A stretch of 64,000 nucleotides of DNA from Desulfurivibrio alkaliphilus AHT 2. Lineage in GTDB: Bacteria > Desulfobacterota > Desulfobulbia > Desulfobulbales > Desulfurivibrionaceae. Below are positions 38,297 through 61,279 of the stretch, in pieces; positions within the stretch are counted from its first letter, which is position 1; each line of letters starts with the position of its first letter. Made by a program: the position numbers and the translations under genes. The notes under the pieces are model-generated. The model worked only from the letters and a program-made list of their open reading frames with translations, had not been told where the DNA came from and searched no databases. The DNA lies in the NCBI RefSeq assembly GCF_000092205.1, contig NC_014216.1, positions 1,741,742 through 1,805,741 on the forward strand. Direction: 5' to 3'.

Positions 38297-40829
38297 TTAA
38301 TCTGGGGGGCAACAGCGGGGAACATGCCTTGGCCCGAAGCCGCCTGGTTTGGCCGGATGCTTCATCCCCGCGAGTGCGGGGAACATGACGGTGAAGCCCT
38401 GCTCCTGCCAATCGAAGCCGGTTCATCCCCGCGAGTGCGGGGAACATGACGGTGAAGCCCTGCTCCTGCCAATCGAAGCCGGTTCATCCCCGCGAGTGCG
38501 GGGAACATTCCAGCAGCTCCTCCAGCTGCAGGCCGCCGATCGGTTCATCCCCGCGAGTGCGGGGAACATTAGTCGGAGCGGATCAGCGCCACCATGTCGG
38601 TCGGTTCATCCCCGCGAGTGCGGGGAACATTTTCACTGTGCCCCAGCAGCTCCTGAACCAGCCGGTTCATCCCCGCGAGTGCGGGGAACATTGGATAGAA
38701 AAACCAAAAGAATCGCCCGACCACGGTTCATCCCCGCGAGTGCGGGGAACATCCGGGGTAAGTTGCGGTGCGGTTACCCCACAGCGGTTCATCCCCGCGA
38801 GTGCGGGGAACATGGTCGGGGTCGGGGTGGCGGTGTCTTTAATTTCGGTTCATCCCCGCGAGTGCGGGGAACATACCCTGCGTCGGGTCCAGAAGTATGC
38901 CACCACCGGTTCATCCCCGCGAGTGCGGGGAACATGGCGCTGTAGCGGTGGGGTTTGCCGTCGCGGCCGGTTCATCCCCGCGAGTGCGGGGAACATCAGT
39001 TACCCACCACAAACCCACCCACCTAACACGGTTCATCCCCGCGAGTGCGGGGAACATGGTTGCGGAACATCTTGAAGTGTTTCATGGCCTCGGTTCATCC
39101 CCGCGAGTGCGGGGAACATTGCGCCACCCATGATGCAATTGCGGCTCGCACCGGTTCATCCCCGCGAGTGCGGGGAACATCTGGACCTCCTTGCAGAAGC
39201 CGGAATCAAAGCCGGTTCATCCCCGCGAGTGCGGGGAACATTTCGCCCGCTGCACCGTGGTTTCCGGCTGGGCCGGTTCATCCCCGCGAGTGCGGGGAAC
39301 ATGATGACCTGTCGGACATGCAGTTCGGCGAGGTCGGTTCATCCCCGCGAGTGCGGGGAACATGGGATCAGCGCCAGCGGGCGTCCCTCGTCATCCGGTT
39401 CATCCCCGCGAGTGCGGGGAACATTCAGTTGCATGATGCTCCTCCCTGGTCATAGCCGGTTCATCCCCGCGAGTGCGGGGAACATTCCTGTATCGAACGC
39501 AACGCACCCCGCAGGTACGGTTCATCCCCGCGAGTGCGGGGAACATCGCTTGCGCCGCTCCTCGCTCATCTCAGAGACCGGTTCATCCCCGCGAGTGCGG
39601 GGAACATGCCTCCGTGTCCGGACCGAACGACAGGTTGACCGGTTCATCCCCGCGAGTGCGGGGAACATCCCGATGCTGGAGCGGGTACCACGTTCTCATC
39701 CCGGTTCATCCCCGCGAGTGCGGGGAACATTGGTTGGAGGGGCTGGAATGGTAGCCACTGAGCGGTTCATCCCCGCGAGTGCGGGGAACATGAAAGATAC
39801 CTGACCACTGCTATTAAGCCTGCCGGTTCATCCCCGCGAGTGCGGGGAACATGTAATACCGGGGTGTTGGCAGGTTTACATGGGCGGTTCATCCCCGCGA
39901 GTGCGGGGAACATAAGTATGCCCTGCAAATGCAATGGCAAATGGCCGGTTCATCCCCGCGAGTGCGGGGAACATAATTATTGAAGAGGAGGTGTGGCCGT
40001 GAGATACGGTTCATCCCCGCGAGTGCGGGGAACATCTCAACCAGGAGGCAACACGATGAACGATGCACGGTTCATCCCCGCGAGTGCGGGGAACATGCGG
40101 TGTCGGCTGGAAGTACACCATTGACCGGCGGTTCATCCCCGCGAGTGCGGGGAACATCGGCTGCAGCGGTTCGACACTATTTATCTTTGCGGTTCATCCC
40201 CGCGAGTGCGGGGAACATGACCCTGACCGAATCACGCCAATATGCTGCCCCGGTTCATCCCCGCGAGTGCGGGGAACATGAGGCTGCCGAGGCTATGCAC
40301 CAGCCCCGCGCCGGTTCATCCCCGCGAGTGCGGGGAACATACTCTACGAAAAAGAAGTTTCCGGTTTCGGTTCGGTTCATCCCCGCGAGTGCGGGGAACA
40401 TAAATAAACCAACCGGGGCCGGGCAACCGGCCCCGGTTCATCCCCGCGAGTGCGGGGAACATGACACCCGCATCCAAGACGGCAAGCTACATTTCGGTTC
40501 ATCCCCGCGAGTGCGGGGAACATAGCTCTGCCTCGAACGTCACGCCGGGGAAATGCGGTTCATCCCCGCGAGTGCGGGGAACATTCCTCGTGCGTTGCCC
40601 CCGCCTCGTCTCGTACCGGTTCATCCCCGCGAGTGCGGGGAACATTCGTCAGGATCATACAACGGGTCATCCGGGTGCCGGTTCATCCCCGCGAGTGCGG
40701 GGAACATACCTCGTACAAGTCACGTTGTCCGCCGAACGTCGGTTCATCCCCGCGAGTGCGGGGAACATCAGCGTCTTGATGCCCTTGTCTCGCAATTCGT
40801 CGGTTCATCCCCGCGAGTGCGGGGAACAT
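38297..40829 (-). CRISPR. Type I-E CRISPR array, 41 canonical repeats plus one decayed
   Basis: Repeats are 29 bp with a 61-bp period (32-33-bp spacers). On the plus strand each begins CGGTTCATCCCCGCG and ends GCGGGGAACAT; the central CCCCGCG and CGGGG form the Cas6e hairpin. The reverse complement resembles the E. coli I-E repeat and would give a 5' handle ATGAACCG, so transcription is on the minus strand with the leader at the 40829 end. The first canonical repeat (38358-38386) has its first three bases altered, and one period further left (38297-38325) a decayed copy keeps only the last 11 bases intact, as expected of the trailer. The two trailer-most spacers are identical (38387-38418 and 38448-38479). 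No I-E cas genes lie in the window. Confidence 0.95.
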
Positions 40830-40952
40830 TTCTGTTAATGGCCAATTAAAATGACCCACTACTGGCCAACAATTTTGACCCACCCCGAGGAGTGGTCAAG
40901 CGGCCATAAAGCGATTAGTGTCCCCGACTATTTACGGACAGGAGGGGATCTG

Positions 40953-42491
40953 GTGAAGGAGTGGGTTATGATTCACAAAATTAAAGCGTTACACGGTGAC
41001 GGAGGTGGGTTGTCGGTCCGTGCTATTGCCTTGGAGCTGGGTGTTTCTCGTAACACGGTACGCAAGTATCTGCGCTTGGATGAGGCGGTCATCAGCCAGG
41101 CGCAGGTTGACCGGGCACGCCATAAGCGTTTGGACATGCACCGGAGCTATATCATTTATCTTTTAGAAACTTATCCCCGCCTCAGTGCGGTGAAAGTGGC
41201 TCGCAAGCTGCGGGAGAAGGTCAGCGGGTTGGCGGTGTCTGATCGGAGTATCCGCCGTTATGTATCGGTCCTGAAAGAGACCGGTGTTGTGGCTCAAAAG
41301 CGCTACTATGAACCGATTATTGATCATGTGCCGGGGGTTCAGTGCCAGGTTGACCCGGGTGAGCTGCGCGGGGTGCTGGTCGGTGGCGAGCCACAAACCC
41401 TGTACTTTGTGGTGTTCGTCTTATCTTTTTCCCGGCTGATGTACGTCGGTCTTTCCTTTGAGCCCATTGATACCGGGCGTTTTATCCAGCTTCACGATGA
41501 GGCGTTCCGTTACTTTGGCGGTGTTACCGAGGAATGTGTTTACGACCAGACCAAGTTGGTGGTCATCGAGGAGCTTTACCGTGAGTTGACGCTTAATCAG
41601 CGCTTTGCTGAATACGCGGCCACGGTGGGTATGCGGGTCCACGCTTGCGAGGGTTATGATCCCGAGAGCAAAGGCAAGGTCGAAGCCGGAGTCAAATATG
41701 TCAAACAGAACTGCCTGTATGGCGAGACGTTCAGCGGCCGGCAGGATCTGCGCCGTTATGTTCGGCAGTGGCTGGACGAGGTGGCTAACCAGCGAACCCA
41801 TGGCACCACCGGGCAGGTTCCCCGGCATCATTTCGAGACCGAAGAGCAGGCGCATCTGCACCCCTATCTGACCCCTGCCGGCTTAACGGTAGCGGCCAGT
41901 GAGCGGCGCAAGGTTGACAAGACCGGGCTGATCTCCTGGCGGGCCAATCGTTACTCGGTGCCCATGGCCTACCAGGGTGGCCAGGTCGGGGTGCAAGTCG
42001 AGGATGGACAATTGCAGGTCATCGACCTTGGCCGTGGCGAAAAGATCGCCTCCCATACCGTTTGCCTGGAAAAAGGCCAGATCATCAAAAACACCCATCA
42101 TTACCGTGATCACAGCCAGCGGCTCCAGGAGCTGGAAGGGGCGGTATGTGCATTACTGGGTCAGCCGGCGGGCGAGCGATTGTGCCAAGTGTTGAAAAGC
42201 ACCTCGCCCCGGATTTACAAAGATCAACTGGTGGCTGCCGTTCAGCTGCTCAAGGCGGAAGAGACCCTTGACCAGGCCCTGGTGGACCGACTGGCCCAGC
42301 GGCCCACGTTGACCGCCACGACCTTGAAACGCTATCTGGATTCCTCCCGCCGCTCAAAAGAACGGGGGCGCGACAGCATCACGGCAACGGGGCTTCCGGA
42401 TGCCGAAATCCAGTTGGGCCAGTATGCATCGTTAACAGCCGGCCATGGTGACCACCCCTTCGGCCAGGAGGTGAACCATGGATGCCATTGA
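40953..42491 (+). CDS. istA: IS21-family transposase IstA
   Basis: 512 residues from GTG 40953, chosen because GGAGGGG lies just upstream and MKEWVMIHKIKALHG matches IstA starts. An N-terminal helix-turn-helix (LSVRAIALELGVSRNTVRKYL) binds the IS ends. The DDE catalytic core shows Asp in VQCQVDPGELRG, Asp in VYDQTKLVV and Glu in ESKGKVEAGVKYVK. It catalyses strand transfer with IstB. The frame is intact and overlaps istB by 14 bp. Confidence 0.94.
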   Translation: MKEWVMIHKIKALHGDGGGLSVRAIALELGVSRNTVRKYLRLDEAVISQAQVDRARHKRLDMHRSYIIYLLETYPRLSAVKVARKLREKVSGLAVSDRSIRRYVSVLKETGVVAQKRYYEPIIDHVPGVQCQVDPGELRGVLVGGEPQTLYFVVFVLSFSRLMYVGLSFEPIDTGRFIQLHDEAFRYFGGVTEECVYDQTKLVVIEELYRELTLNQRFAEYAATVGMRVHACEGYDPESKGKVEAGVKYVKQNCLYGETFSGRQDLRRYVRQWLDEVANQRTHGTTGQVPRHHFETEEQAHLHPYLTPAGLTVAASERRKVDKTGLISWRANRYSVPMAYQGGQVGVQVEDGQLQVIDLGRGEKIASHTVCLEKGQIIKNTHHYRDHSQRLQELEGAVCALLGQPAGERLCQVLKSTSPRIYKDQLVAAVQLLKAEETLDQALVDRLAQRPTLTATTLKRYLDSSRRSKERGRDSITATGLPDAEIQLGQYASLTAGHGDHPFGQEVNHGCH

Positions 42492-43218
42492 ACGAACAGC
42501 CACCAAATACCGCAACTTGCGGCTCAACGCGACGGCCAGCCGGCTGCCGGAACTACTGGCCCGGGCCGACGCCAATGAGCTTTCCTATCTGCACCTGGTG
42601 GAGATGATGGCCGACCACGAACTGGAGCAACGAACCGGTAAACGGATCGCCCTGAACCGCCGGAAAGCCGGCTTCCCCGCCGAAAAAATTCTGGAAGGTT
42701 TCGACTACCGTCACCAGACCACAATAAACAAGCGCCAGGTCAATGCCCTGCTGGATTTCGACTTTATCGATCAGCGTAATAATGTGATTTTTATTGGCCC
42801 GCCGGGTGTCGGCAAAACCCATTTGGCCATTGGGATTGGCCAAAAAGCCATTAACGCCGGCTACAAGGTTCTGTTTCGCAGCGCCCTTGATCTGGTTGAG
42901 GAACTGGAGCTGGCGGAAATGAAAGGTGAACTGAAAAAAAAGGTCAGTCAGTTGGTTAAGTTTGACCTCATGGTCATCGACGAGCTCGGCTACCTGCCGA
43001 TGAGCCGGCAATCACGCTATAATTTGTTCCAGCTAATCAACAGTTTCTACGAATACCGGTCGTTGATCATCACGACCAATAAAGACTTCACCCACTGGGG
43101 CGAGTTCTTTCATAACGACAACGTGGCAGTGCCGATCATTGATCGCATTATCCATCATTCACACATCTTTATGCTAGGAGGAGAAAGTTATCGGCTAAAA
43201 CAGAAAACGGCCCAATAG
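42478..43218 (+). CDS. istB: IS21-family helper ATPase IstB
   Basis: 246-residue AAA+ ATPase related to DnaC that assists IstA in target capture. Walker A GPPGVGKTHLAIGIG, Walker B LMVIDELGYLPM and sensor I LIITTNKDF are present. The N-terminal LRLNATASRLPELLARA and MADHELEQR segments match IstB. The frame is intact and ends about 60 bp before the right IS terminus. Confidence 0.95.
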   Translation: MDAIERTATKYRNLRLNATASRLPELLARADANELSYLHLVEMMADHELEQRTGKRIALNRRKAGFPAEKILEGFDYRHQTTINKRQVNALLDFDFIDQRNNVIFIGPPGVGKTHLAIGIGQKAINAGYKVLFRSALDLVEELELAEMKGELKKKVSQLVKFDLMVIDELGYLPMSRQSRYNLFQLINSFYEYRSLIITTNKDFTHWGEFFHNDNVAVPIIDRIIHHSHIFMLGGESYRLKQKTAQ

Positions 43219-43279
43219 TGGAGGTGGGGTGGGTCAAAATTGTTGGCCAAAGGTGGGTCAAAACTAATGGCCATTGACA

Positions 43280-46200
43280 GCTGCCTGTGCGGCAGTGAAC
43301 AAGTCCACCGGCTTTGCCGATATGGACCTGTGTTTCTGAGCTGCCTGTGCGGCAGTGAACATTTCACCATCATTCGACGGCGGAATTCGTCCTTTCTGAG
43401 CTGCCTGTGCGGCAGTGAACGGAACGTGCTTTTTTTGCCACCGGCGGTTCATTTTCTGAGCTGCCTGTGCGGCAGTGAACTCTTGCCGGAAGCAACTCCG
43501 ATTGACCCACCATTTCTGAGCTGCCTGTGCGGCAGTGAACTGATGGCCCGGACATCGGCGACATTGAAGGATTTTCTGAGCTGCCTGTGCGGCAGTGAAC
43601 ATCCGATCTGGAGCAGTCCCTAAACTCGATCTTTTCTGAGCTGCCTGTGCGGCAGTGAACAAAAACCGTTGCATGGCCTTCTGACTGGGTATTTTCTGAG
43701 CTGCCTGTGCGGCAGTGAACCCGAAACTTTGCCCCTGTGGTAAGCCGGTCAATTTCTGAGCTGCCTGTGCGGCAGTGAACAATACTGTGAGCCCTGCAAA
43801 GACATCCTTTTTTTTCTGAGCTGCCTGTGCGGCAGTGAACAAACCCCGCCGCAAGCGGGCCGGCACTGTTGATTTCTGAGCTGCCTGTGCGGCAGTGAAC
43901 ACATTATGACCGGACCGGGCCGGGGTTCTGTTTTTCTGAGCTGCCTGTGCGGCAGTGAACGATAATTACCGCCATGGTTTACCCCCGTTTGCTTTCTGAG
44001 CTGCCTGTGCGGCAGTGAACATCGGGGTGGTCCCGGTAATACGCTTCAATCAATTTCTGAGCTGCCTGTGCGGCAGTGAACGTGGCCCTTTGCTTCAGCC
44101 GGACAACCATCTTTTTCTGAGCTGCCTGTGCGGCAGTGAACTTGTACTTACTTTCTTTCTTCTTTGCCATTTTTTTCTGAGCTGCCTGTGCGGCAGTGAA
44201 CGAAGCGCAGCGACTTGCGGAACTCTTCGACCTTTTCTGAGCTGCCTGTGCGGCAGTGAACCCTGTGTTGCGTTTTTATACCTTACCTAGTAGTTTCTGA
44301 GCTGCCTGTGCGGCAGTGAACTTGATGAGTGTAAACCTTATTAATTTCGTCTTTTTCTGAGCTGCCTGTGCGGCAGTGAACATACCGGAAACCGCAATGG
44401 AGTATTTAATGTTATTTCTGAGCTGCCTGTGCGGCAGTGAACAACGACGCCTTCAACATGGTCAGCCTGACCAATTTCTGAGCTGCCTGTGCGGCAGTGA
44501 ACGCAGATCACCCCGGCCATGGTCGATGCCTACAATTTCTGAGCTGCCTGTGCGGCAGTGAACTTTTCCTTGGGACATCCCTTACAGCGACGGATTTTCT
44601 GAGCTGCCTGTGCGGCAGTGAACCACAAACCTCCCCGCGATATAGCATTCCGGGCTTTCTGAGCTGCCTGTGCGGCAGTGAACCTTTGCCCGGCTAGCGC
44701 CCAGCCACTCAAGCTTTTCTGAGCTGCCTGTGCGGCAGTGAACACGGTGAAAATCTTGTCGCCGGTTTCGTTAATTTTCTGAGCTGCCTGTGCGGCAGTG
44801 AACTTACGTCGGCCATTGTATACTTTGCCTTTTTTTTTCTGAGCTGCCTGTGCGGCAGTGAACTCCGCTGCGCGCGATTTGATCTCAAGCCTCATTTTCT
44901 GAGCTGCCTGTGCGGCAGTGAACAAGACACCCTGGTATGTGATGCGTGATCTGTTTTTCTGAGCTGCCTGTGCGGCAGTGAACTACTTGTCACTCCCCAC
45001 CACATAACCGCAAATTTTCTGAGCTGCCTGTGCGGCAGTGAACCGCCCTCTCTGTCACCCCTGAATGCCCAAGCATTTCTGAGCTGCCTGTGCGGCAGTG
45101 AACGGAAAGAGATGGACAACAGTTAACTATTGAGATTTCTGAGCTGCCTGTGCGGCAGTGAACATATTCAGCCCGTGAAATAGGCGAGGAAACCTTTTCT
45201 GAGCTGCCTGTGCGGCAGTGAACTTAAACAACTTGGCAGAATTGAAAAGCTTTTTTTTCTGAGCTGCCTGTGCGGCAGTGAACATAAGAGGTTTTGATTG
45301 GTGTTGGGGGTAATGTTTCTGAGCTGCCTGTGCGGCAGTGAACTCGGATATCACCGAGACGCAGACCACGATCCATTTCTGAGCTGCCTGTGCGGCAGTG
45401 AACTCCTCCGCCAATCGTGATCCGAACCCCGGTCATTTCTGAGCTGCCTGTGCGGCAGTGAACGGTGCGATGGAAGTTTACCCGGTTGAATACGATTTCT
45501 GAGCTGCCTGTGCGGCAGTGAACGTAACTCTTGACGCACTCCTTGCATTTGTTAATTTCTGAGCTGCCTGTGCGGCAGTGAACGCCATTTGTTTGTGGGC
45601 ATAAAAGTCCGACAGTTTCTGAGCTGCCTGTGCGGCAGTGAACTTGCCATCTTATCTTTCAGCACCCGATCACCATTTCTGAGCTGCCTGTGCGGCAGTG
45701 AACGTTGAAAATAACCCTCATCGTTTCACCTCGATTTTCTGAGCTGCCTGTGCGGCAGTGAACTATGGATCAAATGTCGCCTGGGTGATGGGTATTTTCT
45801 GAGCTGCCTGTGCGGCAGTGAACTAGTAGCCCTTTACCGGCTATATACTGCAATATTTCTGAGCTGCCTGTGCGGCAGTGAACAAATGTCGACTGGTTGA
45901 TGGAGATGGGTTGGTTTTCTGAGCTGCCTGTGCGGCAGTGAACTAACCGATTTTGTTTTGACGCCAAAACCTAAATTTCTGAGCTGCCTGTGCGGCAGTG
46001 AACTTCCCGGAGAGCCCGGTCAACCCGGCCTTCCTTTTCTGAGCTGCCTGTGCGGCAGTGAACACGGCGGGAGCCGCGCCGTTTGTTGTCATGATTTTCT
46101 GAGCTGCCTGTGCGGCAGTGAACGGCAGGATCATCATTGTCTGCACCCCTTGTTTTTTCTGAGCTGCCTGTGCGGCAGTGAACATCACCATCCCATTAGG

Positions 46201-49200
46201 GCCGGTGCGGGGGAATTTCTGAGCTGCCTGTGCGGCAGTGAACGGTGACAACATCCTCGCCGCCCCTGTCTGGTCTTTCTGAGCTGCCTGTGCGGCAGTG
46301 AACGCTTTTGGACAAACTTTTTGGTTCCAGCCAGCTTTCTGAGCTGCCTGTGCGGCAGTGAACCTGGTAAGCTTTCACAGCCTTTTTCAGGATCATTTCT
46401 GAGCTGCCTGTGCGGCAGTGAACGACGGGGCAGGCCGGCGAGAATCCAGAGGCGCATTTCTGAGCTGCCTGTGCGGCAGTGAACGATCATGGTCCGCATG
46501 CTGCTGCCCTGGATCATTTCTGAGCTGCCTGTGCGGCAGTGAACCCTTGCAGCGCCGCCCATAGCCGCTGGCCGTATTTCTGAGCTGCCTGTGCGGCAGT
46601 GAACCAGAAAATGCTCGGACGGGTGCTCCCGCCAGATTTCTGAGCTGCCTGTGCGGCAGTGAACGTTGTTATCAGCCGGGCTGGTGCGGATGGTCCATTT
46701 CTGAGCTGCCTGTGCGGCAGTGAACGCCCTTGGCTGCCATTTGGTGCCGTCAAGCTGGTTTCTGAGCTGCCTGTGCGGCAGTGAACCAAATGACACCTTC
46801 ACAAATTGCCAGGATATTTTTCTGAGCTGCCTGTGCGGCAGTGAACTGTTCTCAACATCCCACCATCCGTCGCTGTAATTTCTGAGCTGCCTGTGCGGCA
46901 GTGAACTTTCAGTGCCTCGTTGGCGTCTTTGTGGCCCAGTTTCTGAGCTGCCTGTGCGGCAGTGAACCCTGCGTAGCAGTTTCCGGGGCCGGAACTCAAT
47001 TTCTGAGCTGCCTGTGCGGCAGTGAACGAAATCAGAATTGAGGAAGACGGGACGGTGAATTTCTGAGCTGCCTGTGCGGCAGTGAACTCGAAACTGACAC
47101 ATTGCTTGACCTGGGGGATTTTCTGAGCTGCCTGTGCGGCAGTGAACACCTGGGCAGAGATCCCCGCCAGCCATTACAATTTCTGAGCTGCCTGTGCGGC
47201 AGTGAACGCGAAGTCGGCCCATATCCCGGACTTGTTGCCTTTCTGAGCTGCCTGTGCGGCAGTGAACCAGACGGTGAAACGGTGTCGCGAGTTGAAAGCT
47301 TTCTGAGCTGCCTGTGCGGCAGTGAACCTCCCCCTGGTCCATGGCGTCAAGGGTGAACTTTTCTGAGCTGCCTGTGCGGCAGTGAACCGGGATGATGAAG
47401 AATACCGGGGCGCGATTGATTTCTGAGCTGCCTGTGCGGCAGTGAACCCTGGCAAGGTAACCATATCGCAAACGGTTCTTTTCTGAGCTGCCTGTGCGGC
47501 AGTGAACTATTGTAATCGGCCCCAATGAAGTGCCCCTTTTTTCTGAGCTGCCTGTGCGGCAGTGAACGCAGAATCTCGAATGATCCGCCATGACTTTGTT
47601 TTTCTGAGCTGCCTGTGCGGCAGTGAACGAACCACTGCTTTCCGGCCTGCGGCTGGTGCTTTTCTGAGCTGCCTGTGCGGCAGTGAACGTATCTTTTCCC
47701 TGACGGGCACCAGTCCGGCCAGTTTCTGAGCTGCCTGTGCGGCAGTGAACTACCGAGTAGTTCCACTGATGTCCGTCGCCCTTTTCTGAGCTGCCTGTGC
47801 GGCAGTGAACAAGGCAAAACCGTGAGTTGATTGCCCTGCACCTTTTCTGAGCTGCCTGTGCGGCAGTGAACAACGCAAGTCAGCGTTACGGTCCCCCCAG
47901 AGTTTTCTGAGCTGCCTGTGCGGCAGTGAACTTGCAGGAGTCATCGTTCCGCATGGTGCCGGGTTTTCTGAGCTGCCTGTGCGGCAGTGAACCATTTTGT
48001 TGATGTATGGTGCCAAGCCTTCAATTTCTGAGCTGCCTGTGCGGCAGTGAACTCCACCGGGCCGCTGGAACCCGCCCCGTTTTATTTCTGAGCTGCCTGT
48101 GCGGCAGTGAACGTTGCAGGTGCCGTCCGGCTCTTTGTCTCTTTTTTCTGAGCTGCCTGTGCGGCAGTGAACGCCCGAGTACCCGCGCTGATTCCCGTCC
48201 GCTGATTTCTGAGCTGCCTGTGCGGCAGTGAACGTTGCACGGCAAGGTTAGAGTGGCAGAGTTCATTTCTGAGCTGCCTGTGCGGCAGTGAACGCGTTTG
48301 GCATTGACCGGGCCATTATCACCGATTTCTGAGCTGCCTGTGCGGCAGTGAACCTTCTGCGCCAGTCTGACAAGGAAATGGTTCATTTCTGAGCTGCCTG
48401 TGCGGCAGTGAACATACCAGCAGTGATGAATTGATATGGTTTATGTTTCTGAGCTGCCTGTGCGGCAGTGAACCTGGCCGCCATCGGCGTTGGTGCCGCG
48501 ATTTTTTTCTGAGCTGCCTGTGCGGCAGTGAACATAAGCACTTCCCCTTCGGAGATTCACCGACTTTTCTGAGCTGCCTGTGCGGCAGTGAACGATACAG
48601 GGGCGCTTATGGTGGTCGGGGGTCTTTTCTGAGCTGCCTGTGCGGCAGTGAACTCCATGTCATCGGCATTTGTCGGCTGCACACTTTTCTGAGCTGCCTG
48701 TGCGGCAGTGAACCAAATGGTGGATGAAATGATTGAATACCTTCATTTCTGAGCTGCCTGTGCGGCAGTGAACGCCGGGGATCAGTCGGGTGCGCAGGTC
48801 GTCCTTTTCTGAGCTGCCTGTGCGGCAGTGAACCTTTGGACGGAGCCGGTTCGGCGGTTGTTTTATTTCTGAGCTGCCTGTGCGGCAGTGAACCGGTGGA
48901 GCAACAAAGCGAAGCGTCGGGCCTTTTTCTGAGCTGCCTGTGCGGCAGTGAACTTGCTCGGCCATGATGTACCCGGCGAGAGCATTTTCTGAGCTGCCTG
49001 TGCGGCAGTGAACGACGGCGGGGATGCTGTTGTGTTCCCGTATCTTTTCTGAGCTGCCTGTGCGGCAGTGAACGTTGTAGGGTCGTTGGGGTCGAAATTA
49101 CCCTTTTTCTGAGCTGCCTGTGCGGCAGTGAACACAAGTTTTTTGTCATTATTCGCCTCTTGCTTTTTTCTGAGCTGCCTGTGCGGCAGTGAACCTCCAG

Positions 49201-50215
49201 CCAGGCCAGGGAGTACTGATAGTACTTTTCTGAGCTGCCTGTGCGGCAGTGAACTGATCCCTGACGATGTGATTTCCTTTTCTGATTTTCTGAGCTGCCT
49301 GTGCGGCAGTGAACCGGCAGATACGGGCCGCAACGGAGGAGTAGGATTTCTGAGCTGCCTGTGCGGCAGTGAACGTGGTAGCCCACATCATTCCACCCCC
49401 TGGCCATTTCTGAGCTGCCTGTGCGGCAGTGAACTTCACGATATTCATTTTATTTGCCTCATTATTTTTCTGAGCTGCCTGTGCGGCAGTGAACATCTCC
49501 TTGTTCAATCAATCCAACTGCGTCGTTTTCTGAGCTGCCTGTGCGGCAGTGAACACAGCCTCCCCCGGCATTCCCGGCAGTTGTCATTTCTGAGCTGCCT
49601 GTGCGGCAGTGAACCTTCACCCGGTGGCTCGATCGGAGTTGCTTCCTTTCTGAGCTGCCTGTGCGGCAGTGAACCATACACTACTCCGGGCGATGGGGGT
49701 GGTAATTTTCTGAGCTGCCTGTGCGGCAGTGAACCCTGTAAGCCAAGGTACTTGGCCACTTGTTGCTTTCTGAGCTGCCTGTGCGGCAGTGAACGTTGCG
49801 GAATTCTCCGACCTTGTATCCCAAATTTTTCTGAGCTGCCTGTGCGGCAGTGAACGTCGGGAAGGTTGATGGCGTCGATGTTGATCATTTCTGAGCTGCC
49901 TGTGCGGCAGTGAACCTTTATAGCGTGTCGTCTATCCGGGCGGCTATTTTCTGAGCTGCCTGTGCGGCAGTGAACTTTGCCCGGTACTTGCTGGCCTGGC
50001 GCTTGGTTTTCTGAGCTGCCTGTGCGGCAGTGAACTCGGGGTCACTTTTGAGCCTGCCCCCGGTCAATTTCTGAGCTGCCTGTGCGGCAGTGAACGGTTG
50101 AGGTTGCTCATGCTTGGACCTGCTCCTTTTCTGAGCTGCCTGTGCGGCAGTGAACGATTTCGCCAACCTGCACGATGCCTGGCTGAATTTCTGAGCTGCC
50201 TGTGCGGCAGTGAAC
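43280..50215 (-). CRISPR. Type I-F CRISPR array, 116 repeats and 115 spacers
   Basis: Repeats of 28 bp (plus strand TTTCTGAGCTGCC to GCGGCAGTGAAC) alternate with 32-bp spacers, fifteen of them 33 bp, at a 60-61-bp period. The count comes from the span and the observed phase shifts. The reverse complement starts GTTCACTGCCG and ends CAGCTCAGAAA, the I-F form cut by Cas6f, so transcription is on the minus strand from the leader next to cas6f. Repeats look invariant across the array. The leader-distal repeat (43280-43300) lacks its first seven bases because the IS element ends there. Confidence 0.97.
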
Positions 50216-50342
50216 AGTTAATAATTTTTGTAACTATTTGATTTTCAAAGACCATTAAGGCAAATAGCCATAAAACCATTTTAAGAAGCGAGAAATATAA
50301 GCACAATAATTCAAGAACCTACGAAACGCGAAACTAAAAGGG
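50216..50342 (-). promoter_or_regulatory. Type I-F array leader with IHF-type site
   Basis: AT-rich 127 bp between cas6f and the first repeat. On the minus strand AATCAAATAGTTA (plus 50231-50243) is a full match to the IHF consensus WATCAANNNNTTR and lies about 16 bp from the leader-repeat junction. In type I-F and I-E systems IHF bends the leader for spacer integration. Confidence 0.7.
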
Positions 50343-50897
50343 TTAAAACCATGGTACTGTGGCCTCATTACTCAGGCCATACGAAGAAAATCGTCCGGTT
50401 ACGGGTTTTTCCTGCAGCGAGCCATGTTGAATAAATAGCCGAAACTGTTGTCCCGTTGTCTGGCTCTTTAGCTGTACAAACGGTAGTTTTAGGCGCCCTT
50501 CCCTGGCACGCTCCTTTTGCTGCTCCGCATTCTCTTCACTTAGCCATCCCTTTTTTACGGAACGTCGATATAGTCGATCCACGCTGCTTTTTGCCTGCAC
50601 CCTTTTAACTGTTCGGTATTGGCAACTGTCAGGCACTTTCGCAATACCAGACACACGGGTGTAATCTTTCATACCTTGGATCCAATTCAAATCCATGAGA
50701 CGCTTTAAAGATTCTTCGCTGCCGTGAATGCGTAATTTCGAGTTGAGTTTTTTTCCAAACTCCGGGAAGCTTACCCCAATCTCTTGCTTTCCGTTCTCAG
50801 CCAAAGCTCTGTGCAATTTGGCAAACAAAGCGTTCATTAGAATGCTGTCCGGAAATTCCGGGTCAGGTAGCAGACTTATTTCTACATAGCAATCCAT
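50343..50897 (-). CDS. cas6f: CRISPR endoribonuclease Cas6f (Csy4)
   Basis: 184 residues from ATG 50897 (MDCYVEISLLPDPEF), matching the family start; longer frames to 51005 run into cas7f. The catalytic His is at position 29 in LFAKLHRAL, as in Pseudomonas Csy4. The RVQAKSSVDRLYRRSVKKG arginine-rich helix that inserts in the repeat hairpin, and the end SQTTGQQFRLFIQHG with final VPWF, are conserved. It cuts the I-F repeat transcript and stays bound to the crRNA 3' hairpin. It is the last gene of the operon, 11 bp after cas7f. Confidence 0.96.
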   Translation of the reverse strand: MDCYVEISLLPDPEFPDSILMNALFAKLHRALAENGKQEIGVSFPEFGKKLNSKLRIHGSEESLKRLMDLNWIQGMKDYTRVSGIAKVPDSCQYRTVKRVQAKSSVDRLYRRSVKKGWLSEENAEQQKERAREGRLKLPFVQLKSQTTGQQFRLFIQHGSLQEKPVTGRFSSYGLSNEATVPWF

Positions 50898-50908
50898 GGC
50901 CATCACCA

Positions 50909-51928
50909 TCAGTCTGATTTTTCGCCAAAAACTCCTCCGCGAATCAACGTGGCAATAACGTAATGCTGTTGTTCTACAGGGGGCACTTTGTTTTTGATCA
51001 CCCATGAGTCAAGTAAATTGTAAAAATCCATTTTTTCCTTCGGTTGACGATACGCTTTACCACGGTTAGTCACCGAACCGTACGGCTCAACCGCGATGGG
51101 ACCGATTTCGTCCGCTTCAGGATGCCAGGTATCTATGGTCCTCAAAGCATTGCCGATTTTTTGAGAATGAAGCGCCGCCACTCCATCCACTTGGTACAGG
51201 GTTTTACTTTTCCGGCTGTTTCCGCCGCTATCCAACACCAACTCTTGTGAAGGAAAAACCTCCTGGCCGGCTCCAATCAGGGCATAGGCTTCGATAAGCA
51301 AAAACGAAAAAGACTCCCCCGCCAACCCTTGCCTGATGACCTCAGCCATTTCAGCCAGTTCGCCGCCAGAATTGGCAAAATCACGCAACTCGTATTGGCT
51401 GGCAGAAAAAATCCACTCCTTCATGGTTTGCTGATCCTTTATATGTCGCACCCGCACTTCAACCTGCTCGGCTCCGACCCTGTTGCGCCAGAGAAAACGG
51501 GCGTTTGCTATGTTTGTCGCGTAACGATGCGCCAGGTCAGCAAGCCCGTGGTTATCAGCATAAGATTTAATAACCGTTGCCAGAGCTTCCTGGTACGCGG
51601 AATCATTACAGGCCGAAGGCTGGTCGATTTTCCCCAATACCCGCAGGCTGAAACTTACCCTTAAGGTATCAGCATCAAAAGGAAGAGCGGCCACATCAAC
51701 CCTTTGAAGATTGGGTTTTTGAATTTCGGCATCCAGTTTGGCCGGATCATTCTGGATGCTGCTTTTTAAACGATTGGAAATGGTTCCCCTGACATCTTTG
51801 CCAATGATGGTCACTGGCCGCCAGTTGCTGCCATTTTCACGTTCGGTCCAGTTACCGGCATGCATAAGAGCATCGGAATTTGCCAATTTGCGTTCAAAAG
51901 CCAGAACAGATGCAGTTTTTAAAGCCAT
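50909..51928 (-). CDS. cas7f: CRISPR backbone protein Cas7f (Csy3)
   Basis: 339-residue subunit of which six copies coat the spacer part of the crRNA in the I-F Cascade. Family hallmarks: N-terminal [55 protein letters not shown] and [19 protein letters not shown]. Length is typical. It follows cas5f by 15 bp and precedes cas6f. Confidence 0.96.
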
Positions 51929-51943
51929 AACCTCCTCCTTTTC

Positions 51944-52903
51944 TTAATTTGCTGTTTTTTCGGGCTGATAATCATTTTTACACAAATACCAACCAGATTC
52001 CGGATCAACATCGTAGCGCCAAACCAACTGCTGTATCTTGCCAAGACGATGAGGACTCAACCATTCGCCAATGGAATATGCCGACTCCACAAAACGAAAA
52101 GGAACCGAGGAATCTCTTGCCTTGAGCACCTCTCCGGGCTCGAACAGGTCGGAAATCCCTCGATACCCAACAGTAATGGGCACCAACCAGCCTTTTCCCG
52201 GTTTCGGGATGTATTGCCACTCAACCTTGCCGGAATGATCGTCCTGATTTTCGTTATCGCCCTCTACAACCGCCATGAATTTCAAAGCAGAAAAATCAAG
52301 CCAGGCATCCATCGCATCCATCTCTGGATTTTGCTGGAAGCATTTTTCGGTATGTTGGGCCAGCAAATCGGCTCGCTGGACAAGAGCGAAGCCTGGAAGC
52401 AATTTACGTAATTGCCGGCGTTCAAATTTTGCCAGCGAGGCCTCTTCCTCCGGCAAACGCACAAGCTCTATGGCCCCAACCTCCAGAATAGTTCCACCAG
52501 CCAGCCGATGTTCCAGCAGCAATTGTTCAATTTGTTCCGTGACTTCTTCAGGGTCCAGATTAATGGGAACCTCGCCGTCACATGGAATTATCATTGACAC
52601 GTCCATGTGCATCCGACCCTCTTCGACAAATGACGCCGTTTCGCCCTGCTTGGTTAAAGGATTTCGAGTCAGCGCAAACACATAATCCCCCCATCCCTTG
52701 GGCTGGTGAGCATTGACCTGAAAATCATGGCATACAATTCCACACCCATTGGGTTGCAGAGAAAAATGAGGAGGTAACTTTCTGGAAATAGCGTGGACAA
52801 AACCCAAAAAATTGGATATGGCCGGGAAACCCCACGTCACCCCGGCAATGGCATTGGCGTTTTCGACTTTTATATTTCGTAAAATCAGCATGGTATCCAT
52901 CAT
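51944..52903 (-). CDS. cas5f: CRISPR Cascade subunit Cas5f (Csy2)
   Basis: 319-residue RAMP-like subunit that caps the 5' handle of the crRNA together with Cas8f. The start region LILRNIKVENANAIAGVTWG then FPAISNFLGFVHAISRKL is close to Pseudomonas Csy2. Later stretches GWGDYVFALTRNPLTKQG and WLVPITVGYRGISDL also match. Its start overlaps the cas8f stop by 4 bp (ATGA). Confidence 0.95.
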   Translation of the reverse strand: MMDTMLILRNIKVENANAIAGVTWGFPAISNFLGFVHAISRKLPPHFSLQPNGCGIVCHDFQVNAHQPKGWGDYVFALTRNPLTKQGETASFVEEGRMHMDVSMIIPCDGEVPINLDPEEVTEQIEQLLLEHRLAGGTILEVGAIELVRLPEEEASLAKFERRQLRKLLPGFALVQRADLLAQHTEKCFQQNPEMDAMDAWLDFSALKFMAVVEGDNENQDDHSGKVEWQYIPKPGKGWLVPITVGYRGISDLFEPGEVLKARDSSVPFRFVESAYSIGEWLSPHRLGKIQQLVWRYDVDPESGWYLCKNDYQPEKTAN

Positions 52904-54273
52904 GCGTGCACCTCCGGCTCATCGTGCAGATCGTCTTTGAGCAGTCGAAGTTTACTGGCAAGCAAACTTTGCCATTCTCGATGTTCCATATCACCGAGTT
53001 TGAGCAGATCGGATTTGAGGTTGTGGTTAAGCCAAAGAGCAAAACGATCAGCGATTTCCACCTGCCAATCATTTTTTTCACGCTCTTGGGCGAATTCGAC
53101 ATCTTTCGCAACGCGACGAGGGTCAAGCCAAAGCTGTTCAGCACGGTGTAGGCGGCAATCCGGGGAGGCGCTCCACCCCCCCACACCTGCAAGCTTTTGA
53201 ATACTTGCCGCGTATTGGACAAGCAGGTCCATCAGTTCATCAATGTAAGCTCCCCGGCGTTCACGGATGGTTATGGTGCTAGTTTTTTTGGCGTTTTTCT
53301 CAAGGAACCGTCGCAAGTCTTTAATAGTCCCATGCGCCCGAAAGCCAAAATGGTGCCATGAAAAAACGGTTTTAACTTTCAGAGGGGGGGTAAGTTTCCG
53401 TACCCAAGAAGGAGGAGAGCATTGCAGCAAAAAAGCTGAGCCATTCCTTCTTGCATTCAATTGGCTGATATTTTGTGCATTAGAGCCGCCAAATTTTTGC
53501 ATGGCCGTGTTGGGGTAATCGACAACCTTAAATACGCTGAACTTCTTATCACGTTTTGCTTTTCTACCCTCCTTGGCCTCCTCGCCGAATCGGGCTGTTG
53601 CGATACGTTCATACAGAGCTTGAGCAAATGAGGATGAATATAACGGCGCCACAAGATGATAACCTCCTGAACTATCTGGAAAATAAATCTGCTTTGACAG
53701 CTTGTGCGCACCCGTTTCCTTGTTGTCGAGAGCCCGGCAAAAACCTGTCAACCAGGAGCTGGCCTGTTGTTCGTTTTTCGCAATTGGCAACAGCGGAGCA
53801 ATATCCCCTTGCCTGATAAATTCAATCAGAGCCACGCCATCAACTTCCAGTTGAAGCAGTCCAGCCACATCTAAAGCGGCCGCGTTTCCCACAACATCTA
53901 TGGCCGGCTTATGCAAAGACGCTGTACTGAGCAGCGAGTTTTGCCGGTAACTTTCAGGTTGAGTTTCACCACCAACGGCATACAAACTACTGCCCCTGGC
54001 GTCTGGATGGGTATACTTCAGGGCATGGGTAACCATTTGGATCTGCTTGGCCCGGGCGGCTGCATCAGTCAACCATTCGGAAACTTCGTACTTGGCCTCC
54101 TGCGTTTGGCGCTTTTCCGCCAACTCTTGCTCCAGGCTTGCCAGCAGGTTGGGGTCGGAGACTTTTTTGCGCTCACTATTGGCTTTTTTGTCAAAATCTT
54201 CGAGCTTTGCATCCCTTCTAACCCGGATATATTCCACAATTTTCTGTGACATGACCGCCGCTCGTTGCTCCAT
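52900..54273 (-). CDS. cas8f: CRISPR Cascade large subunit Cas8f (Csy1)
   Basis: 457-residue subunit that reads the PAM and clamps target DNA in I-F Cascade. N-terminal KIVEYIRVRRDAKLEDFDK, the ATHALKYTHPDARG-like stretch (VTHALKYTHPDARGSS), FGGSNAQNISQLNARRNG with SAFLLQCSPPSW following, and WLDPRR match the Csy1 family. A GGGGGT lies upstream of ATG 54273. A 66-bp gap separates it from cas3, where a promoter is possible but not clear. Confidence 0.95.
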   Translation of the reverse strand: MEQRAAVMSQKIVEYIRVRRDAKLEDFDKKANSERKKVSDPNLLASLEQELAEKRQTQEAKYEVSEWLTDAAARAKQIQMVTHALKYTHPDARGSSLYAVGGETQPESYRQNSLLSTASLHKPAIDVVGNAAALDVAGLLQLEVDGVALIEFIRQGDIAPLLPIAKNEQQASSWLTGFCRALDNKETGAHKLSKQIYFPDSSGGYHLVAPLYSSSFAQALYERIATARFGEEAKEGRKAKRDKKFSVFKVVDYPNTAMQKFGGSNAQNISQLNARRNGSAFLLQCSPPSWVRKLTPPLKVKTVFSWHHFGFRAHGTIKDLRRFLEKNAKKTSTITIRERRGAYIDELMDLLVQYAASIQKLAGVGGWSASPDCRLHRAEQLWLDPRRVAKDVEFAQEREKNDWQVEIADRFALWLNHNLKSDLLKLGDMEHREWQSLLASKLRLLKDDLHDEPEVHA

Positions 54274-54339
54274 AATTACCCCCTTGATTAAGTTTTAGCC
54301 ATATTGTTGCCCAGGAATATCGATGACCTGTCCGGGATT

Positions 54340-57300
54340 CTAAACAAGTTCGTCATACACCCCCAATCCTTCGTGATACAATCTGGCTTCCTGTTTTTCC
54401 GACAGACCGATGGTCCCGAACACCCTACTGGCCTGATCAAGATCCATATCCAGCGACTCGGACAACTCCAGCAAAATTCGGGCGATATTGTTATCACCCC
54501 AAAATGAAATCCCTCTTTGTGCCAATATCACGTTGGCCGGTCGGAGTGTTTGGGCAGCAGGTATCAGCACACCACCCCTCTGTTGATCAACCATTTTGAA
54601 TTGTGGCTCATCGCCCTCGTCTTCCAAATGGAACATATACTCCACTCTCGGCTCACTTTTGCGGAAAGGGCTACGACGCTGCAACTCGAAGCACCAATGG
54701 GCATGATGTTCCCACCAAAGAGCGGCATAGCTTTTTATATTCAGGTCATTATTACCGAATAACCGCGCTGCTGTATGGGCATGTTCCAGGTCCACCAGGT
54801 TATTTTTAAAATCAAGAGGGTTCCGTTCCACAATCCGGGGTATGGCCCGGACGATTCGCCATTGCTCCGCCTCAAGCAGATCATGAAGGTCGTGGGAGCC
54901 AAGATTGAAGCTTTTCGACTCAAAACCCGGCTTTTCAAATGCCACCTCACGCCCGATCAGTGCCTTGTAATTCTTGGAGAGAATCCGCAGGTTGGATGTG
55001 TCCGGAGTTCCACCTCGATGTCGCAGAATCCTCCCGGCCAATTGGATTATCGACCGCATGGAACTGGGCTCGACAATCGCCCAATCGTAATCATGGTCTC
55101 GCCCTACCTCTGCCACCGCCGTGGCCAGCACCACAAAGATATGGTTTTTCTCCGGGTGAGCGGAGATTGTTCGGGCAATTTCCCCACCGGGATGCCAAAT
55201 GGCGTCCTTTTCATGTCTGGTCAACGCTGCATCCAGGCGACGCTCCATAGCGGAGCGTACGGCCAACGGATGCTGACTGTGGTAAGCACAGTAATGAATA
55301 TGAAAGTCAGGCGGCGGTTCTTTCGTTAGCAGCTGTTTTGCCACCGCCACCAAGGGATTGATATTGGCCATCCGCAATAGCCCGATAGAAACCCGCTTGC
55401 CGCTTTTGGGATGAGTTGTCGCATGACAATCATGCAATTCCCTTATCGACTGCTCAGAGACATCGGCTATGGCCGCAATAGCCGCATCAGAATTACATTC
55501 TGCTACTTCAACCGGCAACAACTCAGCTTGCCGTACCGGGTCAGCATCGAGTAGCCTGGTTACTCTTTTGCCGGCAAATGATTCATGGGCGGCGATAAAA
55601 TCTTCCGGATCGTGATGGTCGCTTTGGGACGCCTCTATTTCATCAAACCAGGCACAACAAATATTTACTTTTCGGCCAGGCTCTCCGTAGACATCCTGAA
55701 AAATCCGACGGCCAGCAGCATAGGCGGCAAAAAGGGCTTTGATTAATGATGGCGGCAAGGTGGCCGAGGAAAGCAAAACTTTGGAGCCGAGCATTCCAGC
55801 CCAGTGGACCAGTCGAGTCAGCGCCGGCAAGTCATCAAGATCAAAATCATCGGGCTCATCAAGTACCAGGTCGGATGTAAACAAGCGCAGCATAGGGGCA
55901 ATCTGCCGACCGCCCCGGTCGCACTCAGTCGCTGGCATCAGATGATCTATGGTGCTGACCAGAATCGGGGCACTTAACAGTTGGTGCAGTTTGGGAGAGC
56001 AGTTGTTCAGCCATTTGCCTATCACGCCATCATCCAGCGACCCATCGTAGCTGACATACTCCTGTTCGGAAAACAGCTCCTCAGCCGACTCCGAGGATTG
56101 AGCTTCGCTCGCTTCATCATAAAGTCGGCTCACTGCCCTGGAGCCGATCAGGACCGCCAAATCATCGTCTTGCAAACCGAGGCGTTCTCGCAGCGCACTG
56201 CCGGTTTGCAGGGTCAATGTCCGCAAACCCAGGGCCACACTGAAACGGCAGCCAATATTCTCGTCGGCCAGGCCGTACATGATACGGGCGTTGGCAAAGG
56301 TTTTACCACAGCCGGTCGATGCCATGTTGACCCCGAAAAAACCGTGCTCAAGAGCCCTCCTTCTGGTGTTGCAGGCCAAATCGTAAGCCCGGTCTTGCCA
56401 ACGAAATCGTTCCTTGGTGCTGCGTTGCTTAAATTTTCTGTGACGGGTAATTGCCGGCAAAGTGCGCCTTATAAAACTGAGCCCGCGGGCCACAACAAGG
56501 GCGTTGCGAGAAACACCGATAACGTGTTCATCCAGTTTCTGTTTCAGGTTGCCGGTGGGTTTATCGGTGTTGGCAAAGGCTTTATAGTGGCTGCACTGCC
56601 AGAGCGTGTTGGGTTCGCGGGATGAGTAATAATGATCTGCCAGCATCAAAGCCAGCCTGGCCATGTGCATGGTGAACGGCTCACTCATCCAGTCCCGGTC
56701 AAAAAAGCTTTTTCCGGCCCGGCTTAAAGCTCTGGCCGCCAGTGACCGAGCTTTGTGGCGCCAGGTTTTGCTGCGCAGGGGGACACCATGGGGAAAGGTC
56801 CATATTGCCTGTTCATTTTTTGCTAACTCCGACGGGGGTATCCTCCCGGAATTCCAAGCCGAATCAAAAATAAAACTTTCCAGCCATTGGTCAATTTGAC
56901 CCAGCGGAGGAGCATTACCTTCCTGGTCCTTGCCAGGCCATTTAGGCAAACGATGATGGGCCACAATCAGCCAGCCAACGGTTTTAGCCAGTGGAGTTTG
57001 CAGGGTGCCGAAAGGATTGCCGAGTCGTTTATCAAGTCCATCCTTGCGCAATGCCGCCAAAAGCGATGATTCATCCTCCCCGTTGATCCGGCTTAGTTTT
57101 TCCAGCCATTCCCAATCCGTACAGCCAGTCACAAAAGCCTGAAAAATCCGCAAAGAAACCCATTCGTGTCGAAATGCTTCTTTGGTTTTGCTCTTTGTTT
57201 TCGCCTTTAATTTGGCCTGAAAAATCTTATTTGCCTTGCCAAAATCGTGAAACAACCCTGCCAATCCCGCCAGCAGAGCTACATCTTCCATGGTATGCCA

Positions 57301-57615
57301 GTCATTTTCCCGTTCCGTGCGGAGTATGTCACGGGTAGTCGTATTGGTTGGCACCGCTCCACTGGCGCTGAATTTTCGAGCGTTGCCAACAATCCAGAGC
57401 ATTTCCGTCCGATTGGCCGCTCTTATCCAGTGGCAGGCCACGGCTGTGTTGCGCCGAGCACTCCTGCGCAACATTTTGCGCAGTGTGTGCAGGCCTTCCT
57501 GGGTAATGGCGGTTTGCCAGGTACGTTCCCCTTTACGTTCTGCAAAATGATCCAAAACCCGACGTGTTACGGGCAGAGCATTCTTGCTGCACTGCGAAAT
57601 CAAAAGGATATTCAC
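54340..57615 (-). CDS. cas3: Cas2-Cas3 fusion nuclease-helicase (type I-F)
   Basis: About 1091 residues from GTG 57615, whose GTGA overlaps the cas1 stop. The first about 95 residues are the fused Cas2 domain (NILLISQCSKNALPVTRRVL, HTLRKMLRRSARRNTAVACHW). An HD nuclease follows (AGLAGLFHDFGKANKIFQAK), then the SF2 helicase with Walker A ASTGCGKTFANARIMYGL, motif II DLVLDEPDDFD, LLSSATLPPSL and QLAGRILRHRGG. In I-F systems this protein both joins Cas1 in adaptation and degrades targets. All key motifs are intact. Confidence 0.96.
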   Translation of the reverse strand: MNILLISQCSKNALPVTRRVLDHFAERKGERTWQTAITQEGLHTLRKMLRRSARRNTAVACHWIRAANRTEMLWIVGNARKFSASGAVPTNTTTRDILRTERENDWHTMEDVALLAGLAGLFHDFGKANKIFQAKLKAKTKSKTKEAFRHEWVSLRIFQAFVTGCTDWEWLEKLSRINGEDESSLLAALRKDGLDKRLGNPFGTLQTPLAKTVGWLIVAHHRLPKWPGKDQEGNAPPLGQIDQWLESFIFDSAWNSGRIPPSELAKNEQAIWTFPHGVPLRSKTWRHKARSLAARALSRAGKSFFDRDWMSEPFTMHMARLALMLADHYYSSREPNTLWQCSHYKAFANTDKPTGNLKQKLDEHVIGVSRNALVVARGLSFIRRTLPAITRHRKFKQRSTKERFRWQDRAYDLACNTRRRALEHGFFGVNMASTGCGKTFANARIMYGLADENIGCRFSVALGLRTLTLQTGSALRERLGLQDDDLAVLIGSRAVSRLYDEASEAQSSESAEELFSEQEYVSYDGSLDDGVIGKWLNNCSPKLHQLLSAPILVSTIDHLMPATECDRGGRQIAPMLRLFTSDLVLDEPDDFDLDDLPALTRLVHWAGMLGSKVLLSSATLPPSLIKALFAAYAAGRRIFQDVYGEPGRKVNICCAWFDEIEASQSDHHDPEDFIAAHESFAGKRVTRLLDADPVRQAELLPVEVAECNSDAAIAAIADVSEQSIRELHDCHATTHPKSGKRVSIGLLRMANINPLVAVAKQLLTKEPPPDFHIHYCAYHSQHPLAVRSAMERRLDAALTRHEKDAIWHPGGEIARTISAHPEKNHIFVVLATAVAEVGRDHDYDWAIVEPSSMRSIIQLAGRILRHRGGTPDTSNLRILSKNYKALIGREVAFEKPGFESKSFNLGSHDLHDLLEAEQWRIVRAIPRIVERNPLDFKNNLVDLEHAHTAARLFGNNDLNIKSYAALWWEHHAHWCFELQRRSPFRKSEPRVEYMFHLEDEGDEPQFKMVDQQRGGVLIPAAQTLRPANVILAQRGISFWGDNNIARILLELSESLDMDLDQASRVFGTIGLSEKQEARLYHEGLGVYDELV

Positions 57616-58589
57616 CGGCCCACCTTGCTTAGAGCGGATGCTGTCTCTTTCAGACAATCGATCATGATATCCAGGGCGCCGAAACGGTTGAAACCCTGAG
57701 TGCAACGTTGCCTGAACTCCATATCATCCTCACCGTTTGTAGCCGCGATGAAAGCCTGCGGCAAGACCATGGCATCCTTGACCAAATCAGCGATATCAAA
57801 GACCAGACCGCCCCGGCGGGTTTTACCGTGTAAAACCGACAAACCATGCGGTAGCCCCAAAACCCAGGCCGCCGTGGCTCCCAATCCGTAAGCCAGATAG
57901 TTACCGTGATCCAGAAAACGATTGGCCGCGTCAATCCCCGCTCCGCGTTTTGAACGGGTAAAGTCGCCATATCGAACTGTGTTTGCTGCAATCTTGTAAA
58001 GTGCTTTGGTAAGTTTCGCCTCCTGAGCCAGGATTTCATTGGTATCTATGGCCTGTTCCGTTTTGGTGCGAAACTCTGCCAATAAACCAGTCAGCTTGGA
58101 TTCATCAACAACAAAGCCATCTTCCCGCTCCAGTTTTTTACCAAGCCAGATTTTGGCAATCTGTTCCATACGCACCACCTGGAACCCCTTGGCTGCTTCA
58201 ACACGTTTTTCTTCGTCAAACCAAAAGCTTACCCAGTGCTGCAAATACTCTGTCGGCCGGTATTCGCTTTGTGAGGTCAACCATGAAATGTCAACCTGCA
58301 CTTCATTGGCGGCGAACAGTGGCGTTCCATCGCCACCGCAAAAACCAACCAATACTCCCGCTTTGGCCAATTCCCGCATCGCCGACTGGGTAATGGAAGT
58401 GCCGGTGCCAAGCAGGATTGAAGTGGTATTGGCAATGGGGATATTCCAATACAACGATTTTCTGCCCTCTTCGGTTACATATTCAACCCGGCCACCGCTG
58501 ACCAGCACCCGGCAATGTTCCAGATAGTAAATATTGGCGCGCTTGGAATGAAGAATCGTTTTCAAGTCTGAGGGGGTAAAATTTTCCAT
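57612..58589 (-). CDS. cas1: CRISPR integrase Cas1 (type I-F)
   Basis: About 325 residues from ATG 58589 (MENFTPSDLKTILHSKRANI), the family start; an upstream GTG at 58601 adds four residues. Conserved stretches EYVTEEGRKSLYWNIPIAN, LLGTGTSITQSAMRELAKAG and VLVGFCGGDGTPLF are typical of Cas1f. The metal-binding Glu (AQEAKLTKALYKIAANTVRYG), His (LSVLHGKTRRGG) and Asp (VFDIADLVKDAM) are present. It inserts spacers at the leader end with the Cas2 part of Cas2-3. Confidence 0.97.
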   Translation of the reverse strand: MENFTPSDLKTILHSKRANIYYLEHCRVLVSGGRVEYVTEEGRKSLYWNIPIANTTSILLGTGTSITQSAMRELAKAGVLVGFCGGDGTPLFAANEVQVDISWLTSQSEYRPTEYLQHWVSFWFDEEKRVEAAKGFQVVRMEQIAKIWLGKKLEREDGFVVDESKLTGLLAEFRTKTEQAIDTNEILAQEAKLTKALYKIAANTVRYGDFTRSKRGAGIDAANRFLDHGNYLAYGLGATAAWVLGLPHGLSVLHGKTRRGGLVFDIADLVKDAMVLPQAFIAATNGEDDMEFRQRCTQGFNRFGALDIMIDCLKETASALSKVGR

Positions 58590-58639
58590 CGTAGTAGTCA
58601 CCCGCTTAATAGATATATTTGAATGTGTGGTGCTTTTTG

Positions 58640-61046: not shown

Positions 61047-61279
61047 AACGCCCCCCTGCGTTAATGCCAACTTGGTTGCCTGCCGTTGCCTGCACAAACC
61101 AAAGCAAACGGCGAGGCGGAGCCCAAAAATGCCGGATAAACAACCGGCAGGATTCCGCTGCAAACAGTATCAGTAAAATGGCCATGCCGCCGCAAGCGTG
61201 CCCCGGTGGCTTGAGCCATGCAAGCTACCAGGCTTTCTTAAGGTACTCGAAATGTTTTTTGAAGCAAGAAGTTAACCTT

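What the first reader, a model, noticed from the sequence alone, without database searches (positions are those of the whole stretch)
40829..43300. IS21 element fuses a leaderless I-E array to a truncated I-F array
By repeat orientation the I-E leader should start at 40830, but the IS begins 3 bp away and its other end lies inside a type I-F repeat. There is no target duplication. This suggests an IS-mediated deletion that removed the I-E leader (and perhaps I-E cas genes) and the old end of the I-F array. The 41 near-identical I-E repeats imply recent activity before the loss.
Basis: partly seen in the sequence, partly recalled or inferred. Interest (0 to 1): 0.75.

Follow-up and report, generated by a model that had tools for sequence, protein, structure and literature searches.

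The report
IS21 truncates and joins CRISPR arrays
In the soda-lake bacterium Desulfurivibrio alkaliphilus, a jumping gene sits exactly where the working half of an old type I-E CRISPR system has been lost, joining the leftover memory array to a newer type I-F system; this is a clear case of a known kind of IS-driven CRISPR loss, and the same rare kind of jumping gene also borders a cut-off I-E array in two other species.

Summary
A 2,447-bp IS21-family element (40833-43279) lies 3 nt beyond a 41-repeat I-E array (38358-40829). Its other end lies inside an I-F repeat that has lost 7 nt (43280-43300), followed by 115 perfect I-F repeats and a complete I-F cas operon. There is no target duplication, whereas the genome's other copy (one SNP different) has a perfect 5-bp one. 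The genome (3,097,763 bp, matching D. alkaliphilus AHT2) has none of the I-E cas genes tested for and only one cas1, which is cas1f. A congener, Desulfurivibrio sp. AMeS2, keeps a full I-E locus with nearly the same repeat; its leader and cas genes are on the side where the window has the IS. A Bro-N gene that heads the I-E operon in relatives survives in the window beside cas1f. So the I-F locus now sits between the head and tail of a former I-E locus. This supports an IS-associated deletion of the I-E cas genes, leader and probably newer spacers. Precedent: IS6110 deletions in the M. tuberculosis CRISPR locus. New twist: two other copies of this rare IS group also border I-E arrays without target duplication, a suggestive but unproven pattern.

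The parts
38297..38325 (-). decayed oldest I-E repeat remnant (AGCGGGGAACAT core, one 61-bp step left of the array)
   Evidence: direct reading (reprinted); marks the leader-distal end
38358..40829 (-). type I-E CRISPR array, 41 repeats of 29 bp, 40 spacers of 32-33 nt; crRNA sense is the minus strand
   Evidence: orientation confirmed by the congener's cas-leader-array order
40830..40832 (.). TTC (GAA in array sense): 3 nt between I-E repeat and IS; does not match the leader end AGT seen in relatives
40833..43279 (+). IS21-family element, 2,447 bp, no target duplication
40851..42491 (+). istA transposase, 546 aa
42478..43218 (+). istB ATPase, 246 aa
   Evidence: PF01695 E 8.5e-78
43280..43300 (-). 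type I-F repeat cut by the IS (21 of 28 nt left)
43333..50215 (-). type I-F CRISPR array, 115 identical intact repeats (116 with the cut one)
50216..50342 (-). presumed I-F leader, AT-rich, between array and cas6f
   Evidence: position and composition
50343..58601 (-). complete I-F cas operon: cas1f, cas2-3f, cas8f, cas5f, cas7f, cas6f
59468..59890 (-). Bro-N domain gene; its relatives lie just upstream of cas3e in two relatives, so it is read as the surviving head of the lost I-E operon
60042..61163 (-). WYL-domain regulator; an 81% identical relative lies upstream of Bro-N and cas3e in the congener

Best explanation
The window holds a decapitated type I-E locus. An ancestor had WYL, Bro-N, the I-E cas genes, the I-E leader and a longer I-E array. 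An I-F cas operon and array, not found in any other genome of the same family sampled here, came to lie between Bro-N and the I-E part. A deletion bounded by this IS21 element then removed the old end of the I-F array, all I-E cas genes, the I-E leader and probably the newest I-E spacers, leaving one IS copy without a target duplication. The most likely route is homologous recombination between two direct IS copies, one in the I-E array and one in the I-F array, or an adjacent deletion made by a single copy. The I-F system looks intact and should still work. The 40 I-E spacers are an orphan memory without Cas6e, Cascade or an adaptation site. Shown: the anatomy, the absence of the tested I-E cas genes, the missing duplication, and the intact counterpart in the congener. 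Inferred: the order of events, the deletion route and loss of function.
For: No I-E cas gene found in the complete genome. The congener AMeS2 has cas3e, cas8e, cas11e, cas7e, cas5e, cas6e and cas1e, then a leader and a 109-repeat array whose repeat differs at 1 nt. Bro-N lies just upstream of cas3e in G011 (7 bases between them) and upstream in AMeS2, and its homologue lies upstream of cas1f here, with homology ending near the Bro-N stop. In the 27 genomes of the family searched, Csy1 is found only in this one, while Cse1 is in 7 others. The 5-bp duplication is missing, against a perfect one at the second copy. The 3 nt next to the IS are not the conserved leader end. Loss of duplications through IS recombination or adjacent deletion is documented (PMC11708052), as are IS-bounded CRISPR and cas deletions (PMC7708916).
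Against: No intermediate with two IS copies or with I-E and I-F cas side by side was found. The second genomic IS copy is 620 kb away with its own matched duplication, so it is not the partner. Beyond WYL and Bro-N there is no synteny with AMeS2, so the ancestral order rests on two flanking genes plus the array. No spacer is shared with AMeS2.
Confidence: 0.75

Rival explanations
1. One-step replacement: an incoming I-F locus replaced the I-E cas genes by recombination, and the IS came along or arrived at the joint rather than making the deletion.
For: I-F cas sit exactly between Bro-N (head of the I-E operon in relatives) and the I-E array, and I-F is found only in this genome within the family.
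Against: A later simple insertion should have left a 5-bp duplication, as in the second copy; none is present. The I-F array is broken exactly at the IS end.
Confidence: 0.15
2. The two arrays were already joined, with an I-F repeat end abutting an I-E repeat, and the IS inserted at the joint with a small target loss.
For: The GAA next to the IS plus the first A of the I-E repeat equals the last four bases of the I-F repeat (GAAA); only TCA would be missing.
Against: Three free bases are about a 1 in 64 coincidence and several such readings were possible. Insertion of this IS makes a 5-bp duplication, not a 3-nt loss.
Confidence: 0.05
3. Inversion or translocation: the I-E leader and cas genes were moved elsewhere by IS recombination.
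For: Two IS copies exist in the genome.
Against: No I-E cas genes found in the single-contig genome, and the other IS copy has a matched duplication.
Confidence: 0.02
4. This IS21 subgroup favours type I-E arrays or their repeats as targets, so the array is a hot spot rather than a chance victim. This would add to the deletion model rather than replace it.
For: Of 14 copies with both flanks known, 3 (window, AMeS2, Methylotuvimicrobium buryatense) border I-E arrays, all in the same relative orientation, and in M. buryatense the IS end is inside an I-E repeat. The other IS end in the window is inside an I-F repeat.
Against: Small numbers; the window copy was the starting point, so it is ascertained. 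If the two Desulfurivibrio cases share one origin the remaining excess is p about 0.04-0.11. Eleven other copies are not at arrays. Insertions in dispensable DNA persist more often.
Confidence: 0.18

Closest known systems
IS6110-bounded deletions in the CRISPR (DR) locus of Mycobacterium tuberculosis, e.g. the Beijing deletion from csm4 to an IS6110 next to a spacer (PMC7708916)
   Same: One IS at the deletion joint, IS ends inside repeats or spacers, loss on the cas side, explained by recombination between two IS copies.
   Different: IS6110 and a type III-A locus in many isolates; here an IS21-family element, one genome, and the joint fuses two different subtypes (I-E and I-F).
IS transposition into cas genes (PMC10359306)
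   Same: IS activity inactivates CRISPR immunity in nature.
   Different: Insertions into cas genes; here a deletion removed the cas genes and leader and left the array.
Adjacent deletions and IS-IS recombination leaving IS copies without target duplications (PMC11708052)
   Same: Same signature: IS at a deletion joint without duplication.
   Different: Shown for IS150, IS5 and IS481; the paper's main text does not mention IS21.
Desulfurivibrio sp. AMeS2 I-E locus (L067/G002, NZ_JARGDQ010000006.1)
   Same: Near-identical I-E repeat, same WYL and Bro-N neighbours, same IS (91%) at the array, also without duplication and in the same relative orientation.
   Different: The IS is at the old end there; cas genes, leader and young spacers remain, and there is no I-F system.

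Membership tests
IS21 family | istA transposase followed by overlapping istB ATPase | tested here: met
   istA 40851-42491, istB 42478-43218; IstB_IS21 E 8.5e-78; about 69-71% DNA identity to annotated IS21-like elements on plasmids
IS21 family | inverted ends beginning TG, with short target duplication | tested here: met
   TGTTAATGGCCA...TGGCCATTGACA; 5-bp duplications at 8 other copies; absent at this copy
type I-E CRISPR array | 29-bp repeat of I-E sequence with 32-33 nt spacers | tested here: met
[quoted passage not shown]
   Cse1, Cas7e, Cas6e absent genome-wide; only Cas1f present; cas5e, cas11, cas2e and cas3e were not searched as families
type I-F CRISPR-Cas system | cas1f, cas2-3f, cas8f, cas5f, cas7f, cas6f beside an I-F array | tested here: met
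IS-mediated CRISPR deletion (IS6110 type) | IS at the joint without target duplication, flanks from two separate places | tested here: met
IS-mediated CRISPR deletion (IS6110 type) | sister strain with the undeleted state or two IS copies | tested here: inconclusive
   AMeS2 shows an intact I-E locus but is another species without I-F; no intermediate was found

The most novel reading that the evidence does not exclude
A subgroup of IS21 elements (ends TGTTAATGGCCA/TGGCCATTGACA) repeatedly targets or erodes type I-E CRISPR arrays in a fixed orientation, leaving joints without duplications, and so repeatedly truncates CRISPR memory in unrelated bacteria.
Probability: 0.18. Interest if true: 0.65.

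Novelty: new member of a known kind. Interest (0 to 1): 0.42.

Why it matters
It gives a readable case of subtype turnover: the head (Bro-N) and tail (array) of a lost I-E system frame the I-F system that now occupies the locus, and an IS marks the joint. It explains one orphan array and one truncated array by a single kind of event. If the recurrent association of this IS with I-E arrays holds up, it would mean that some transposons preferentially trim CRISPR memory.

Tried and rejected
Spacers of both arrays, of AMeS2 and of M. buryatense were compared with the window, its flanks, the IS and the relatives' cas loci. In the part of the output returned (it was cut), only chance-length matches appeared, so there is no sign that self-targeting or anti-cas spacers drove the deletion. 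No phage protospacers were found; the two phage-collection hits were low-identity, and the Saccharomonospora one spreads over many pieces as repeat matches would. No I-E leader-like sequence was found in the window. The phylum-wide IS search found only three genomes of 395 with the element. The promoter scan in the IS is no better than shuffles. Inversion was rejected because the other IS copy has a matched duplication.

Full report
Observation. The I-E array has 41 repeats (38358-40829), 40 of them identical, with a decayed repeat further left at 38297-38325. After TTC, the IS runs from 40833 to 43279. The next base, 43280, is base 8 of a 28-bp I-F repeat, and 115 perfect I-F repeats follow to 50215, with a complete I-F cas operon at 50343-58601.

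Calibrating the missing duplication. The genome is complete and carries exactly two full copies of the IS. The other copy, one SNP different, is flanked by ACTGT on both sides, which fixes the ends and the 5-bp rule. Among relatives with both flanks readable, seven more copies have perfect 5-bp duplications. The window copy has ATTTC and GCTGC. Its lack of a duplication is therefore real and not a wrong choice of end.

Identity of the genome. The contig is 3,097,763 bp, the same as the published size of Desulfurivibrio alkaliphilus AHT2 (PMC5016858). That paper's table gives 2 under 'CRISPR repeats', which fits the two arrays here.

Leader side and missing genes. The first repeat there follows the leader in the orientation that puts the window's leader to the right of 40829. 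In the window's genome Cse1, Cas6e and Cas7e are absent and Cas1f is the only Cas1. A DNA search with 4.7 kb of the congener's locus also found nothing, but on its own that is weak.

Framing by the old locus. Bro-N ends 7 bases before cas3e in G011, and WYL plus Bro-N lie upstream of cas3e in AMeS2. Their homologues in the window (59468-61163) lie upstream of cas1f, with one 212-aa open frame without a known domain between, and DNA homology to AMeS2 stops near the Bro-N stop codon. Among 27 genomes of the family, 7 have Cse1 and only the window's has Csy1. The simplest reading is that the I-E locus is the old resident and the I-F locus the newcomer, now filling the place of the I-E cas genes.

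Where the break lies. The leader ends in AGT in AMeS2 and in G011, but the three bases between IS and array here read GAA. The break is therefore probably inside the I-E array and an unknown number of newer spacers was lost too.

Mechanism. Two routes fit: recombination between two direct IS copies, one in each array, or an adjacent deletion by one copy. Both are documented causes of IS copies without duplications (PMC11708052), and the first is documented for CRISPR loci (IS6110 in M. tuberculosis, PMC7708916). They cannot be told apart from one genome. The identical repeats and the single SNP between IS copies suggest a recent event, but this is inference.

Recurrent association. AMeS2 has the same IS (91%) eight bases past a repeat at the old end of its I-E array, with no duplication. 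Methylotuvimicrobium buryatense 5G has a related IS (53% IstA identity) with one end inside an I-E repeat at the leader-distal end of an array next to I-E cas genes, again with no duplication. The IS has the same orientation relative to the array in all three. Of 14 copies with both flanks known, the 3 at arrays lack duplications and 8 of the 11 others have them (Fisher p 0.055). Setting the window copy aside, the chance of 2 array copies among the other 13 is 0.0007 to 0.007, taking 0.3% or 1% per copy as the background (assumed values), but 0.04 to 0.11 if the two Desulfurivibrio cases are one event. This is a lead, not a result.

Verdict. The finding is sound and well explained. Its kind is known; the fusion of two subtypes and the recurrence of the same IS group at I-E arrays are the parts worth following.

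Noticed in passing
L073:9928-12449 (Methylotuvimicrobium buryatense 5G): A related IS21 element ends inside an I-E repeat at the leader-distal end of an I-E array next to I-E cas genes, with no target duplication.
   Followed up: partly
L051:11345-13791 (Desulfurivibrio sp. AMeS2): A 91% identical copy of the IS cuts off the old end of the I-E array, without duplication, its other end lying beside a transposase-like gene fragment.
   Followed up: partly
window 38387-38418 and 38448-38479: The two oldest I-E spacers are identical, a local duplication.
   Followed up: no
L051:2450-3439: In AMeS2 a 329-aa gene matching PADLOC candidate PDC-S23 sits between cas6e and cas1e inside the I-E operon.
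   Followed up: no
window 43481-43512 and 49615-49646: Two I-F spacers match each other in inverted orientation over 24 nt at 92%, as overlapping protospacers on opposite strands would.
   Followed up: no
L002:1501-3947: The second genomic copy of the IS is inserted in the istA-like gene of a different IS21-like element, with duplication ACTGT.
   Followed up: yes
window 59468-59890; L053:18019-18552; L050:14149-14754: A Bro-N domain gene lies just upstream of cas3e in two relatives, suggesting a regular companion of these I-E operons.
   Followed up: partly
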